Part shown: in pieces, positions 48,377 to 55,601 of the stretch
Layout: every line of letters begins with the position of its first letter
Numbering within the stretch: the first letter of the stretch is position 1
NCBI GenBank assembly: GCA_031275395.1
Contig: JAISOU010000032.1
Span: 1 to 64,000 of the forward strand
From: Helicobacteraceae bacterium
Lineage (GTDB): Bacteria > Campylobacterota > Campylobacteria > Campylobacterales > SZUA-545
DNA: 64,000 nt
Direction of reading: 5' to 3'
Made by a program: the position numbers and the translations under genes
Notes under the pieces: generated by a model
Seen by the model: the letters and a program-made list of their open reading frames with translations, nothing else
What the model was told of the DNA's origin: nothing
Database searches by the model: none

Positions 48377-49366
48377 TTAGCAAAACGCCGATCGGGAGCG
48401 AATGACAATCCGATCAGGTTCGCAAAACAAACCTAATTTGTAAGCGTCGATCGCCGCTCTGGCGATCATAGCCGCGTTGTCGCCGCAATACTCGGCGGGG
48501 GCGAACAGCGGTTCGCAGTCGTAATCGCGGCATAGAGCGGCAAAACGATCGCGCAGGAGTTTATTCGCGCTTACGCCCCCGATTAACCCCATTCGTTGCG
48601 GGCGCGCCTTGCTAACGTAGCGACGCGTTTTGTCCAAAAGATGATCGATCGCCGCTTTTTGAAACGAAGCGGCGATATCGGCTTTTGTACGATCGTCAAG
48701 AGCGCCCAAAGATTCGATCGCCAGACGAACGCTGTTTTTTAACCCCGAAAAACTAAAAGCCAAACACGGATCGTTTCGAAGCGGCAACGGAAAATCAAAG
48801 CGTTTCGGATCGCCTTTTTGCGCCAGCTCTTCGATCGCGCCGCCGCCCGGATAGCCCAACCCCAACATTTTGGCGATCTTGTCAAAAGCCTCGCCAAGCG
48901 CGTCGTCAAGACTCGCGGCGATCTGTTTAACGCGGCTGAAATCTTGCGCCTCGATCAGGAGCGTATGCCCGCCGCTTACCATCGCCGCGCTAAGAGGAAA
49001 AGCGCTTTTGGTTTGCAAAAAAAGCGAATACAGATGACCTTTAATATGATGAATCGGCAAGATCGGTTTTTTCAAAGCCAACGAGAGCGCCTGCGCCATC
49101 ACCACTCCTTCGGCAAGCGCGACGGTCAGCCCCGGCTCGTTTGCGACGGCGATCGCCTCGATACGCGAAAAATAGGGTTTCGCGCCCTCTAAAAGTTTCG
49201 GCAGATTTTCGGCGTGAAGCCTTGCGGCAAGCTCTGGAACTACGCCGCCAAAGGGATTGTGCGCCTCGTTTTGCGAAACTTTCGCCTCAAAAACGATCTT
49301 TAGAGTAGCGCGATCGATTATGGCGATCGCGCTGTCGTCGCAGCTCGATTCGATCGCCAAGATCAC
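48377..49366 (-). CDS. tsaD: tRNA N6-threonylcarbamoyladenosine transferase TsaD
   Basis: TsaD transfers the threonylcarbamoyl group to A37 of ANN-decoding tRNAs. The 329-residue product has MILAIESSCDDSAIAI at the start, the metal-binding HHIKGH (His pair), MVSGGHT and a C-terminal DNAAMIA. It overlaps the upstream regulator gene by 4 bp. Length is normal. Confidence 0.97.
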   Translation of the reverse strand: MILAIESSCDDSAIAIIDRATLKIVFEAKVSQNEAHNPFGGVVPELAARLHAENLPKLLEGAKPYFSRIEAIAVANEPGLTVALAEGVVMAQALSLALKKPILPIHHIKGHLYSLFLQTKSAFPLSAAMVSGGHTLLIEAQDFSRVKQIAASLDDALGEAFDKIAKMLGLGYPGGGAIEELAQKGDPKRFDFPLPLRNDPCLAFSFSGLKNSVRLAIESLGALDDRTKADIAASFQKAAIDHLLDKTRRYVSKARPQRMGLIGGVSANKLLRDRFAALCRDYDCEPLFAPAEYCGDNAAMIARAAIDAYKLGLFCEPDRIVIRSRSAFC

Positions 49367-51360
49367 TTCGCGCCAATCTGTCCCAAAGGCTTGGAGTATA
49401 AAAATCCTTGCGCGTAGCCGATCCCAAGCCGTTTTGCCAACTGCGCGATCGACTTTTTGCTCGCGCTTTTTGCGATAACGTCCGCGCCTAACTTTTCCGC
49501 AAAACTAGCGATAATCTCCGTATAAGCCAAACTGTTGCGATCCGAGTCCATATTTGCGACGATCGCGCCGTCGATCTTGACGAAATCGGCGTTAAGTTTT
49601 ATGATATTTCTAAAGCTCAAATAGCCGATTCCAAAATCGTCGATCGCTACGCGAGCGCCCCAAGATTGAATATCTTTGGCGAACTTCGCTATGTTGGGAA
49701 AGTTGCTATCGAGCGGTTCCGCTTGCGAAAACTCCGCCACGAAGCGCCGCGCTACGCCCGTTTTTTCAATAACCCGCTTAAGGTGTTTTTTGGTTTCTTC
49801 GTTGCGAACGTCGTCGGCGTTTAGGTTCAGGCTAAAGTCGTAGGATTTGTCGGCGAAGTATTCGCACGATTTTTCAATCATAATCCGCGACATTTTGCTA
49901 TATTGCCTCGTCTTTCGCGCCAATTCCAAAAACTCTCTGGCCTCCATAAAAGAGCCGTTATCCTCCGCGATACGCATTAAACATTCGTATTGGACTACCG
50001 CGCCCGTTTTTAGATCGACGACGGGCTGAAAAAATGGAACGATGCGATCTTCGTCGATCGCTTTTTTGATCTTTGCAACCAATTTGACGTTTTTCGCAAA
50101 CTCTTCTTCGAGTCCTTCTACGTCCTCGTAACAAACCGCGTTTTTATGTTCGCGCTTGGCGATTCTTAGAGCCATATCCGCTTTAGTCGTCGCGTTGGTT
50201 TTAGAAAGCGAGTAACCCGCCTTTGCGCTAATCAGTATCTCATAGCCGTCAAAAACAAAGGTTTCTTGATCGAGCCGCGCCAAAAGATTTTTCACAAACT
50301 CTCTCATTCCGCCGCATTTGCTCTGATCCCGCGCTAAAACGCCGAACTCGTCGGCGGATAGTTTATAGACCGTAGCGTTTCCGTGCATTTCGGTTAAGTA
50401 GCGTTTTAGCGCTTCGCCTACGCCGATTAAAACCTTATCGCCGATCTTGTTTCCATAAACGTCGTTGATCGAACTAAATCCGTCGAGATTAACGAGTATT
50501 AACGCGGGTAACGGCGCGGATTCAAGATCGTATCGAAGGGCGTTGCGGTTGGGAAGCGAGGTTAATTCGCTAACGTAATGCCTTGTCGCCATCGCCGTAA
50601 TATCTTGGCGCAAATCGAGATACTCCAAAACCGCGCCCGCGCCGTCCATAATAGGCGCGATCGTCAGGTGAAAATACTTTGTATCGCCGTTTTTGGCTAC
50701 GTTGCGAACGACGCCGTTAAATATCCGCTTATTGGAGATCGCAAGATAGATCGCGTCAAGCGTTTCCGGCGATTCTTTCGGGTGCGCGAGTAGGCTGTAT
50801 GTTTTGCCTACGATCTCGTCGCGCGAGTAGCCAAGAATGGCGCAAAAAGCGTCGTTAACCTCGATGATTTTGTTATTGGCGTCGGATTTTGAAACGATCG
50901 CGCTTGCATCAACCGCTTTTTTGTAATCGGTCAAAACTTTAACGCTGGCGCTTAACTCCTCCGTTTTTTGCTTAACTTTGCGCTTTAAACAGTAGTTTTG
51001 CGCGCACCGCTCCAAAACGGATAGCAACCGCCCTAGCTCGATCGGCTTAAATAGATATTGGCTAACGCCCAGATCGATTGCGTTTATCATAAACTCCGCG
51101 TCAATAAACGCGGAAACGACGATAATCGGCGTTTCGGAATTGGCTAGGCGAATCTCGCGCGCCATCGTAATTCCGTCCATAACGGGCATTTTAATGTCGG
51201 TGATAACAATATCGGGTTGGTATAGCGAAAAGATATGAAGCCCCTCTTTGCCGTTTGTCGCCAAATAGAGTTCGCCCACATAACGCCCAAGCGATTTAGC
51301 AATCGCGTCAAGCACGCCGTGATCGTCTTCTACAAGTAAAACTTTCAGCTCCGCTAACAC
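49363..51360 (-). CDS. Response regulator with PAS and degenerate GGDEF-EAL domains
   Basis: The 665-residue product has a receiver (phosphoacceptor D55 in VITDIKMP), a coiled linker, a PAS domain (about 145-255), a GGDEF domain whose signature is SADEF (335-339) and an EAL domain whose signature is ECL (459-461). DDFG (574-577), K595 and QGF (651-653) are kept, but the AEGVE segment is AKSAS (630-634), losing the glutamate that acts in catalysis. It probably neither makes nor degrades c-di-GMP efficiently and may be a c-di-GMP receptor. It overlaps tsaD by 4 bp. Confidence 0.9.
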   Translation of the reverse strand: MLAELKVLLVEDDHGVLDAIAKSLGRYVGELYLATNGKEGLHIFSLYQPDIVITDIKMPVMDGITMAREIRLANSETPIIVVSAFIDAEFMINAIDLGVSQYLFKPIELGRLLSVLERCAQNYCLKRKVKQKTEELSASVKVLTDYKKAVDASAIVSKSDANNKIIEVNDAFCAILGYSRDEIVGKTYSLLAHPKESPETLDAIYLAISNKRIFNGVVRNVAKNGDTKYFHLTIAPIMDGAGAVLEYLDLRQDITAMATRHYVSELTSLPNRNALRYDLESAPLPALILVNLDGFSSINDVYGNKIGDKVLIGVGEALKRYLTEMHGNATVYKLSADEFGVLARDQSKCGGMREFVKNLLARLDQETFVFDGYEILISAKAGYSLSKTNATTKADMALRIAKREHKNAVCYEDVEGLEEEFAKNVKLVAKIKKAIDEDRIVPFFQPVVDLKTGAVVQYECLMRIAEDNGSFMEAREFLELARKTRQYSKMSRIMIEKSCEYFADKSYDFSLNLNADDVRNEETKKHLKRVIEKTGVARRFVAEFSQAEPLDSNFPNIAKFAKDIQSWGARVAIDDFGIGYLSFRNIIKLNADFVKIDGAIVANMDSDRNSLAYTEIIASFAEKLGADVIAKSASKKSIAQLAKRLGIGYAQGFLYSKPLGQIGAK

Positions 51361-51415
51361 CGTATATATCTTTTCGCGTTAATTTTAGACATAATAATAA
51401 CCTTTAATTATTTGA

Positions 51416-51617
51416 TTACGCGGTAAGAATTTCTTTCGCTTCGACAAAAAGAGAGTCGGATACCGCCGCTTTTGCTTTTTGCGCCGCAAGCGCCAAGATG
51501 GTTCGCGCGCGATCGTTACGCCCCCCCCCCCCCCCCAGTTACGGCGGGATAGAGCCTGTTTGCGCGGGCGATTAAGCGATCGCCTCCTAGATGATGTTGC
51601 GAAAGAGTAACCGACAC
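51416..51617 (-). pseudogene. Small gene put out of frame by a poly-G tract
   Basis: On the minus strand a GTG at 51617, about 9 bases after GAGGGG, starts MSVTLSQHHLGGDRLIARAN and reaches the G-run. With 16 Gs it stops one codon later. Fifteen Gs would instead join it to RNDRARTILALAAQKAKAAV and a stop at 51416, a 66-residue product whose two halves both use codons like the neighbours. The other frame open through the tract (51651 to 51385) is very rich in Arg and Lys and less natural. The family is not recognised. Confidence 0.45.
51521..51536 (-). repeat. 16-base homopolymer (C on +, G on -)
   Basis: Sixteen consecutive C on the plus strand, between leuC and the GGDEF-EAL regulator. Tracts of this kind mutate in length by slipped-strand mispairing and are the usual contingency switch in Campylobacter and Helicobacter. 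Confidence 0.9.
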
Positions 51618-51684
51618 CGCGTTTGTCCCCTCGTTCTTTGATTAGCGTCATTGCAATTATATCGCTTTTTCGCGCTAAAGCGGT

Positions 51685-52944
51685 TTAGAATTCTCTCGGA
51701 TCGGCTATTTCGCCCGCGATCGCGCTTGCCGCAACGACCGCCGTGTTTGCAAGATAAACCTCGCTCGTTTTAGCGCCCATTCTACCTACAAAGTTGCGGT
51801 TGCTGGCGCTTATGCACCGCTCGTTATCGCCCAAAATACCCATATAGCCGCCCAAACACGCGCCGCAGGTAGGATTGCTAACGACCGCGCCCGCTTCGGC
51901 GAAAATCTCGTAAAGCCCCTCTTTTTGCGCCTGTAAGGCGATTTTTTGCGTCGCGGGAGTAACGATCATGCGCAAATGGCGGGCGACTTTGCGCCCCTTT
52001 AATATGTTCGCGGCGATTCTAAGATCGCTTATGCGTCCGTTTGTGCAACTGCCGATAAACGCCTGATCGATCTTTACGCGCTCGTTAACGGCTTCGCTAA
52101 TCGTCCGCTTATTATCGGGCAGGAACGGAAAAGCTACGATCGGCTCCATTTTATCCGCGTCGATCGCGATCGTCCGCTCGTAGAAAGCGTCTTTGTCCGA
52201 CGCGAAAATCTTGGGCTTCCTAGCGAGTTTTTTGTCGCTTAAAAAGGTTTCGGTAATCTTGTCGTAAGCGATTATTCCGCTTTTCGCGCCCGCCTCGATC
52301 GCCATATTACAAAGGCTGAAGCGATCGTCCATTCCAAGACGCTCTAAACTGTCGCCGACAAACTCCAGCGCTTTGTAGGTCGCGCCGCTAACGCCTAAGC
52401 GCGCTATCGTTTCAAGAATTATATCTTTGCCATAGACGCATTTTGCGGGTTCGCCGCGTAGCTCGATCTTAATCGAAACGGGAATCTTAAACCAATTTTT
52501 TCCCGTCGCCATCGTATAGGCTAGATCGGTCGATCCCATACCCGTCGCAAACGCGCCCAAAGCGCCGTGCGTGCAGGTGTGGCTATCCGCGCCGATAATA
52601 ATATCGCCCGGGACGATCAACCCCTTTTCGGGCAAAAGCGCGTGTTCTATGCCCATCTCTTTTTCGTCGAAAAAGTGGGGCGGATTATGTTTAAGCGCGA
52701 AATCGCGGCTAATTCGCGCCTGATTAGCGGCGCTGATATTTTGGGCGGGGATAAAGTGATCCATACAAAGCGCGAAGCCTTCGGGGTTAGCGAGCCGCGC
52801 CGCGCCCGCGCCCTCGAAAGCGCGAATACTCAATGGAGTCGTAATATCGTTACCGATCGTCATATCGACGCCGACGCGAACTATTTCGCCCGATCGCGCC
52901 GCCTCGCCGCAATGATCGGAAAAGATTTTTTCAGTGATCGTCAT
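51685..52944 (-). CDS. leuC: 3-isopropylmalate dehydratase large subunit
   Basis: LeuC with LeuD isomerises 2- to 3-isopropylmalate in leucine synthesis. The 419-residue product (short LeuC/homoaconitase-type form) has ADSHTCTHGA, GSCTNGRISDL and TCGACLGGY; three cysteines bind the 4Fe-4S cluster. The ATG at 52944 (MTITEKIF) matches family starts; an ATG at 52959 lies at the expected transcription start. leuD and the other leu genes are not in the window. Confidence 0.93.
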   Translation of the reverse strand: MTITEKIFSDHCGEAARSGEIVRVGVDMTIGNDITTPLSIRAFEGAGAARLANPEGFALCMDHFIPAQNISAANQARISRDFALKHNPPHFFDEKEMGIEHALLPEKGLIVPGDIIIGADSHTCTHGALGAFATGMGSTDLAYTMATGKNWFKIPVSIKIELRGEPAKCVYGKDIILETIARLGVSGATYKALEFVGDSLERLGMDDRFSLCNMAIEAGAKSGIIAYDKITETFLSDKKLARKPKIFASDKDAFYERTIAIDADKMEPIVAFPFLPDNKRTISEAVNERVKIDQAFIGSCTNGRISDLRIAANILKGRKVARHLRMIVTPATQKIALQAQKEGLYEIFAEAGAVVSNPTCGACLGGYMGILGDNERCISASNRNFVGRMGAKTSEVYLANTAVVAASAIAGEIADPREF

Positions 52945-52966
52945 ACCGTAGGTTTTCATGCGGCGA

Positions 52967-53987: not shown

Positions 53988-55047
53988 AGTCGCTTTAATT
54001 ACGGGCGTTACGGGGCAAGACGGCGCTTATCTTTCCGAGTTTTTGCTCGATAAGGGTTATATCGTTCATGGGATCAAACGAAGAACTAGTTTGTTTAATA
54101 CCGCTAGAATCGATCATTTGATGCATGATCAACATGAAAAAAACGTTCGTTTTTTCTTGCATCACGGCGATATGACGGATAGCTCTAGCCTATCGCATAT
54201 TATTCAAAAAACGCAACCCGACGAGATTTATAACTTAGCGGCGCAAAGCCACGTAGCGGTGAGTTTTGAAGAACCCGAATATACCGCCAATTCCGACGCG
54301 CTAGGCGCTCTTCGTCTGTTAGAGGCGATCCGTATGCTTGGTTTGGAAAAAAAGACGCGCTTTTATCAGGCTTCCACAAGCGAGCTTTACGGCTTGGCGC
54401 GCGAGATCCCGCAACGAGAAACCACGCCGTTTTACCCGCGCAGCCCATACGCCGTCGCTAAACTTTACGCCTATTGGATTACCGTTAATTACCGCGAAGC
54501 ATACGGCATATACGCCTGCAACGGGATTTTATTTAATCACGAAAGCCCGATTCGCGGCGAAACCTTTGTTACGCGCAAGATCACGCGCGCGCTAGCGCGA
54601 ATTAAGCTCGGCGCGACGGATTGTTTATATTTGGGCAACCTAAACGCAAAACGCGATTGGGGACACGCCCGCGACTACGTCGAGATGATGTGGCTTATGT
54701 TGCAGCAAGAAAAGCCCGAAGATTTCGCGATCGCTACGGGGACGCAATACAGCGTGCGGGAGTTTGTCGAGGCGGCGGCAAAAGAGCTTGACATAACGAT
54801 TCGTTGGCGCGGCGAGGGCGCGGACGAAAAAGGTTACGATCAAAACGATCGCGTTATCGTGGCGGTCGATCTGCGCTATTTTCGCCCAGCCGAAGTGGAA
54901 ACCTTGCTTGGAGACGCGGCAAAAGCGCGGCAACAATTAGGTTGGAAGGCAAAAACATGCTTTAACGATCTGGTTACAGAGATGGTCGCGGCAGATTTGC
55001 AAGAGGCAAAAAACGAAGCGCTAATAAATACAAAGGGCGAGCGATGA
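53980..55047 (+). CDS. gmd: GDP-mannose 4,6-dehydratase
   Basis: Gmd converts GDP-mannose to GDP-4-keto-6-deoxymannose, the step before Fcl. The 355-residue product has the nucleotide-binding [30 protein letters not shown], the QASTSELYG block and the catalytic YAVAK. It overlaps fcl by 8 bp and the methyltransferase gene by 4 bp. No mannose-1-phosphate guanylyltransferase is in the window. Confidence 0.97.
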
Positions 55048-55601
55048 AGTTACATTTGGGCTGCGGCAAACGGTATATTCCGGGATTTACGCATATAGAC
55101 GCGGTGGATTATCCGCACGTCGATCACGTTAGTCAGATCGACGTTTTACCCTATATCGCGGATAATAGCGTCGATCTGATCTACGCCTGCCACGTTTTGG
55201 AGCATTTCAAACGCAGCGACGTCGCGCGAGTTCTTACGGAGTGGAAGCGCGTATTAAAACCAAACGGTATTTTGCGGCTCGCCGTACCAAACTTTGCGGC
55301 GGTATGCGAGGTCTATCAAAAATACGGTAGATTGGACTTGGTAATCGGCTTAATTTTTGGACGGCAGGACTATCTATACAACATTCATTACAACCTTTTT
55401 GACTATCCCGCGCTTGTTAAACTCCTTAAGGAGGTTGGCTTTACAGGGGGGGGGGGGGGGGAGCAAGATTGGCGTTATGATTGGCGCGGAACCGAACATG
55501 CGCAAATCGACGACTATTCGCAGGCTTATATCCCGCATATGGACAAGGATAACGGCATTTTAGTTAGCTTAAATGTGGAGGCGCAAAAACCCGCCGTATA
55601 A
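55044..55601 (+). CDS. SAM-dependent methyltransferase, phase-variable
   Basis: The 185-residue product starts [19 protein letters not shown], where LGCGK is the SAM-binding motif, followed by the [12 protein letters not shown] post-motif, as in small class I methyltransferases of surface-polysaccharide loci. A 16-base G tract falls in frame as five glycines then Glu, and the C-terminal part ([19 protein letters not shown]) is normal, so the gene is ON as sequenced. It overlaps gmd by 4 bp, suggesting O-methylation of a fucose-containing glycan. Confidence 0.88.
55446..55461 (+). repeat. 16-base poly-G tract inside the methyltransferase gene
   Basis: Sixteen consecutive G after TTTACA. In-frame at 13, 16 or 19 bases, frameshifted otherwise. 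Confidence 0.95.

What the first reader, a model, noticed from the sequence alone, without database searches (positions are those of the whole stretch)
51416..51617. Phase-variable small gene in the OFF state at a 16-base poly-G tract
The sequence before and after the tract is coding-like in two frames that join only when the tract has 15 or 18 bases. A 66-residue product would result. It sits between leuC and the GGDEF-EAL regulator, so the switch might also affect the regulator's transcription. The protein is unrecognised, so this may be a new phase-variable effector.
Basis: partly seen in the sequence, partly recalled or inferred. Interest (0 to 1): 0.6.

Follow-up and report, generated by a model that had tools for sequence, protein, structure and literature searches.

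The report
G-tract in a c-di-GMP regulator's leader
A run of 16 G bases, of the kind bacteria use to switch genes on and off at random, lies in a short reading frame just upstream of a signalling-protein gene in a Helicobacter-related bacterium, and it looks more like a switchable lead-in to that gene than like a gene for a new small protein.

Summary
In detail: a 16-G tract (minus strand, 51521-51536) lies between leuC and a REC-PAS-GGDEF-EAL regulator, and a 66-codon frame joins only at 15 or 18 G. The locus is shared with one sister species (15 G). It sits in a spacer of about 300 bp that six other relatives lack; there leuC and the regulator abut.

The 'new small effector' reading is weak. 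The frame changes between the two species like non-coding DNA (5 silent : 16 replacement codons, against 138 : 82 in the flanking genes, p = 0.0008). No protein family matches.

What is kept is translation anatomy: a strong Shine-Dalgarno, a start codon, and three tract-dependent stop positions (about 125 nt upstream of, 24 nt upstream of, or overlapping a 12-codon mini-ORF whose stop overlaps the regulator's start). Best reading: a phase-variable leader ORF tuning the regulator. Expression effects are untested. Tracts in this lineage do switch: a neighbouring methyltransferase tract is in frame here and out of frame in the sister. A neutral tract remains a serious rival.

The parts
51521..51536 (-). 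Poly-G tract, 16 G (15 G in the sister species)
   Evidence: conserved in position in G005, and one of the minority of tracts shared by the two genomes
51361..51684 (-). Lineage-specific spacer between leuC and the regulator (324 bp, including the remodelled start region of the regulator gene)
   Evidence: Absent in G001, G002, G003, G006, L052 and L053, where leuC and the regulator abut; no other DNA match apart from tract-driven and short chance-level hits
51416..51617 (-). Leader ORF: GTG start (ATG in G005); 66 codons at n=15, 33 codons at n=16, 77 codons at n=17
   Evidence: strong Shine-Dalgarno GAGGGGA, -7.9 kcal/mol, spacing 8, in both genomes
51656..51661 (-). TATAAT, possible -10 element of a promoter for leader ORF and regulator; no -35 consensus; coordinates approximate
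   Evidence: Seen by eye, identical in G005; a strict two-hexamer sigma-70 scan finds no promoter, so weak
51355..51393 (-). Mini-ORF of 12 codons (Shine-Dalgarno AAAGG) whose TAG stop overlaps the regulator's GTG start, at the position of the ancestral regulator start; coordinates approximate to a few bases
   Evidence: 12 codons and the overlap are kept in G005; alignment of regulator N-termini
49363..51360 (-). Response regulator, REC-PAS-GGDEF-EAL, 665 aa; GGDEF motif reads SADEF and the EAL domain has lost the AEGVE glutamates (AKSAS), so enzyme activity is doubtful
   Evidence: Pfam; orthologue alignment; alignment to solved EAL domains
51685..52959 (-). leuC, 3-isopropylmalate dehydratase large subunit, upstream neighbour

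Best explanation
A phase-variable leader ORF for the downstream REC-PAS-GGDEF-EAL regulator. Shown: in two sister species a spacer carrying a ribosome-binding site, a start codon and a G tract separates leuC from the regulator, and tract length modulo 3 sets where ribosomes entering at that start must stop. The three stop positions, measured from the A of the mini-ORF ATG, are about 125 nt upstream (33-34 codons; the present state of both genomes), 24 nt upstream (66-68 codons), or overlapping the start (77-81 codons). The mini-ORF's stop overlaps the regulator's start, and the regulator's own start has no good Shine-Dalgarno. Inferred: slippage changes the tract length within populations. Ribosomes ending near or on the mini-ORF promote re-initiation and coupling into the regulator, while early termination leaves about 120 nt untranslated and lowers regulator expression by lost coupling or Rho-dependent polarity. 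The peptide sequence itself would matter little, which fits its neutral evolution.
For: Spacer present only in the two sisters. Start codon kept although its first base changed (GTG/ATG), with identical strong Shine-Dalgarno and spacing. Same three-way stop logic in both despite indels beside and downstream of the tract: -24 in both, -124/-127, +7/+13. Mini-ORF of 12 codons overlapping the regulator start in both. Amino-acid sequence not conserved, as expected if only the frame matters. Tract conserved in place while most tracts are not shared. Tracts in this lineage do switch phase: the methyltransferase 4 kb away is in frame with 16 G here and out of frame with 15 G in G005. The principle has an experimental precedent in Streptococcus gallolyticus pil1 (PMC3894217).
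Against: No expression, read-level or promoter data. Only two genomes, both in the same early-stop phase. The spacer is not clearly more conserved than four-fold sites (7/81 and 15/102 changes against a rate of 0.149). No intrinsic terminator or significant RNA structure in the leader, so a pil1-style attenuator is absent and the coupling or polarity step is inference. The regulator's catalytic motifs are degenerate, so its output is uncertain.
Confidence: 0.45

Rival explanations
1. Chance or neutral: a lineage prone to G-tract growth acquired a non-functional tract in intergenic DNA, and the short frames are accidental.
For: 61 tracts of nine or more G in this genome, many outside long ORFs. 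Substitution pattern in the spacer is neutral. Open frames arise in about 4% of shuffles. The two species are only about 15% diverged at four-fold sites, so simple inheritance could preserve the tract.
Against: Strong identical Shine-Dalgarno with a maintained start codon, preserved three-way stop geometry and mini-ORF overlap. Most tracts are not shared between the two species but this one is.
Confidence: 0.33
2. A phase-variable 66-68 aa small protein, ON at 15/18 G, currently OFF.
For: Both halves kept open in both species with net in-frame indels. Downstream half has coding-like codon usage. Good Shine-Dalgarno.
Against: 5 silent: 16 replacement codon changes against 138: 82 in neighbouring genes, Fisher p = 0.0008. 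Both genomes OFF. No Pfam, PHROGs, NCBIfam or convincing PDB match. Beyond G005, only chance-level hits in the genomes searched.
Confidence: 0.13
3. A G-repeat in an mRNA leader acting as an sRNA target or length-dependent rheostat, as RepG does on tlpB in H. pylori.
For: G tract within a presumed 5' leader in a Campylobacterota lineage. RepG control was shown with leader repeats of 6-16 G (PMC8295292).
Against: No Rfam match above gathering score in the region. No RepG-like RNA was sought across the genome. The tract lies about 160 nt upstream of the regulator start, inside a plausible ORF.
Confidence: 0.09

Closest known systems
Streptococcus gallolyticus pil1/pil3 leader-peptide phase variation (GCAGA repeats, PMC3894217)
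   Same: A repeat inside a leader ORF; repeat number sets where the ribosome stops; the stop position would set downstream expression; peptide sequence secondary
   Different: Mononucleotide G tract, no terminator hairpin found, coupling through a mini-ORF proposed instead of anti-termination; downstream gene is a regulator, not a pilus operon; no experimental proof
Poly-G translational phase variation in Campylobacter and Helicobacter (PhasomeIt, PMC6321876)
   Same: Poly-G on the coding strand, out-of-frame state, many tracts per genome
   Different: Campylobacter tracts peak at 9-10 G; here internal tracts have median 14 G. The frame at this locus is a short, neutrally evolving leader rather than a conserved gene
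RepG / tlpB G-repeat leader control in H. pylori (PMC8295292)
   Same: Variable G-repeat in the leader of a signalling gene
   Different: No sRNA known here; three-frame geometry predicts modulo-3 rather than graded control
C. difficile pdcB switch (PMC9286219)
   Same: Phase variation of a c-di-GMP-domain protein through its upstream region
   Different: Promoter inversion by recombination there; repeat slippage in a leader ORF proposed here

Membership tests
Simple-sequence-repeat contingency (phase-variable) locus | Homopolymer tract far longer than chance | tested here: met
   16 G against an expectation near 0
Simple-sequence-repeat contingency (phase-variable) locus | Tract length varies between related genomes | tested here: met
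   16 against 15 in G005, alongside a CGAA insertion beside the tract; only two genomes
Simple-sequence-repeat contingency (phase-variable) locus | Reversible length variation within a population, with an expression effect | not testable with these tools
   No reads, no culture
Phase-variable protein-coding gene | Joined frame under purifying selection | tested here: not met
   Replacement-rich, neutral-like change, p = 0.0008 against neighbouring genes
Phase-variable protein-coding gene | A homologue with the frame joined (ON) | tested here: not met
   Only homologue, G005, is also out of frame
Leader-peptide phase variation (pil1 type) | Repeat inside a leader ORF with ribosome-binding site upstream of the regulated gene | tested here: met
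Leader-peptide phase variation (pil1 type) | Stop position shifts with repeat number relative to a downstream control element | tested here: met
   -124, -24, +7 relative to the mini-ORF start; same logic in G005
Leader-peptide phase variation (pil1 type) | Transcription terminator hairpin between leader ORF and gene | tested here: not met
   No terminator-like site, no significant structure
RepG-type G-repeat regulation | A trans-acting sRNA with a C/U-rich loop pairing to the repeat | not tested
   Only an Rfam scan of the locus was made; no genome-wide sRNA search

The most novel reading that the evidence does not exclude
A three-state, mononucleotide-slippage leader ORF that sets expression of a c-di-GMP-type response regulator by translational coupling through a mini-ORF, so that one slipping tract diversifies a signalling output across a bacterial population.
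Probability: 0.3. Interest if true: 0.65.

Novelty: new variant of a known kind. Interest (0 to 1): 0.4.

Why it matters
Poly-G phase variation is usually described as on/off switching of surface genes in pathogens. If the leader reading is right, slippage here would set a signalling regulator among three levels, through ribosome stop position alone and with no need for a functional peptide. It would also warn annotators that out-of-frame 'small genes' at such tracts can be control regions rather than proteins.

Tried and rejected
Small-protein family search of both joined products (Pfam, PHROGs, NCBIfam) and of the window product against PDB: nothing. The 88-aa ATG frame open through the tract in both genomes: rejected as coding because its codon usage is strongly non-coding and its Shine-Dalgarno is poor. 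Spacer as a repeat or mobile element: no second copy, apart from tract-driven and short chance-level hits. Weak protein hits in other genomes (for example G013, G011, G006): low-scoring, not at the leuC-regulator junction, several driven by the glycine run; taken as chance. Rfam RNA: nothing near its gathering score. Terminator and structured leader: none. Structure prediction was not run: the joined product is not encoded by the window as it stands, and its sequence is not conserved.

Full report
What is there. On the minus strand the order is leuC (51685-52959), a 324-bp spacer, then a 665-aa response regulator (49363-51360). Pfam gives REC, PAS, GGDEF and EAL domains for the regulator. The spacer holds 16 G at 51521-51536. 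As assembled it ends after 33 codons.

Who it is. The window belongs to a genome of 2.08 Mb in 96 contigs. The nearest relative, G005, corresponds to a MAG titled 'Helicobacteraceae bacterium isolate Kf353_bin5', matched by its contig of 16744 bases and identical sequence. A termite or cockroach gut origin of this MAG series is my guess from isolate names, not a tool result.

Comparative evidence. G005 has the same spacer with 15 G. In G001, G002, G003 and G006, and in L052 and L053, the leuC stop and the regulator start lie within about 20 bp or overlap, with no spacer. In G004 a different sequence follows leuC. So the spacer is most simply a gain in the common ancestor of the two sisters. 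Alignment of regulators shows that the two sisters lack the first 6 to 10 residues of their relatives and start at the residue just before LAELK. At the old start position lies a 12-codon mini-ORF with a Shine-Dalgarno (AAAGG), whose TAG overlaps the regulator's GTG/ATG, in both species.

Is the 66-aa frame a protein? Four-fold sites in leuC and the regulator differ by 0.163 and 0.140. In the joined frame, 7 of 81 bases upstream and 15 of 102 downstream differ. Five changed codons are silent and 16 are not, close to the 5.1 silent expected without selection. The flanking genes have 138 silent and 82 replacement codons (Fisher p = 0.0008). Codon usage is coding-like only in the downstream half. 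No family is matched, and PDB hits are above E = 0.5. This argues against a conserved effector, with the caution that the frame is short and only one pair of genomes exists; fast-evolving proteins are not excluded.

What is kept instead. The Shine-Dalgarno (GAGGGGA, -7.9 kcal/mol, spacing 8) is identical, and the start stays a start although its first base changed. The tract's three phases put the ribosome's stop at -124, -24 or +7 relative to the mini-ORF's A in the window, and at -127, -24 or +13 in G005. Both assemblies are in the early-stop phase. That geometry is what a leader-ORF switch needs: coupling or re-initiation in two phases, a long untranslated gap in the third. This last step is inference. 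I saw no terminator and no notable RNA fold, so the attenuator of the S. gallolyticus pil1 system has no counterpart here.

Is the tract of a switching kind? The genome has 61 tracts of nine or more G, and the six other genus members held have 26-60. A second genus of the family (g6) has 26-53, whereas the other relatives have 0-4. Half of the tracts in this genome lie near contig ends, some with 30-70 G. Those may be assembly or sequencing artefacts, but the tract in question is flanked by unique sequence on both sides and recurs in G005. Internal tracts have median 14 G, longer than the 9-10 typical of Campylobacter. Shared tracts mostly differ in length between the sisters (16/15, 16/15, 15/18, 18/20, 20/19). 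The methyltransferase tract at 55446 is in frame here (16 G, 185 aa) and out of frame in G005 (15 G). So length change with a coding consequence does occur in this lineage.

The regulator's output. The GGDEF motif reads SADEF. In the EAL domain the stretch that aligns with AEGVE of solved EAL domains reads AKSAS in both sisters, whereas L052 and L053 keep the first glutamate. Catalysis is therefore doubtful, and 'c-di-GMP regulator' is a domain-based label.

Verdict. Observation confirmed; interpretation partly supported. I favour a phase-variable leader ORF of the regulator (0.45) over a neutral tract (0.33), a small protein (0.13) and an sRNA-target rheostat (0.09).

Noticed in passing
window 55446-55461, gene 55044-55601 (+): A second 16-G tract inside a methyltransferase gene that follows gmd and an fcl-like gene; in frame here, 15 G and out of frame in the sister species G005, as in Campylobacter-type phase-variable glycan methyltransferases.
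   Followed up: yes
G000 whole genome; genera g1 and g6 of the family: Dozens of G tracts per genome (26-61) in two genera, near zero in five other genera of the family (g2-g5, g7), so the phase-variation habit was gained or lost within the family.
   Followed up: partly
L213, L235, L236, L206, L196, L239: G tracts lie in large genes that look by eye like TonB-dependent receptors (L213, L235, L236), an acyltransferase (L206), a sulfatase-like enzyme (L196, in frame) and a TPR protein (L239); several are out of frame as assembled. No family search was run on them.
   Followed up: partly
L241, L228, L212, L215 (contig ends): Runs of 33-70 G at contig ends, possibly assembly breaks at long tracts or poly-G sequencing artefacts.
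   Followed up: no
L137 (G004), downstream of leuC: A long tandem run of a 5-base unit (AACGC) starting a few codons after an ATG, possibly another repeat-based switch.
   Followed up: no
window 49363-51360 (-): GGDEF motif SADEF and EAL stretch AKSAS in both sisters: both enzyme domains look degenerate in the lineage that carries the leader spacer.
   Followed up: partly
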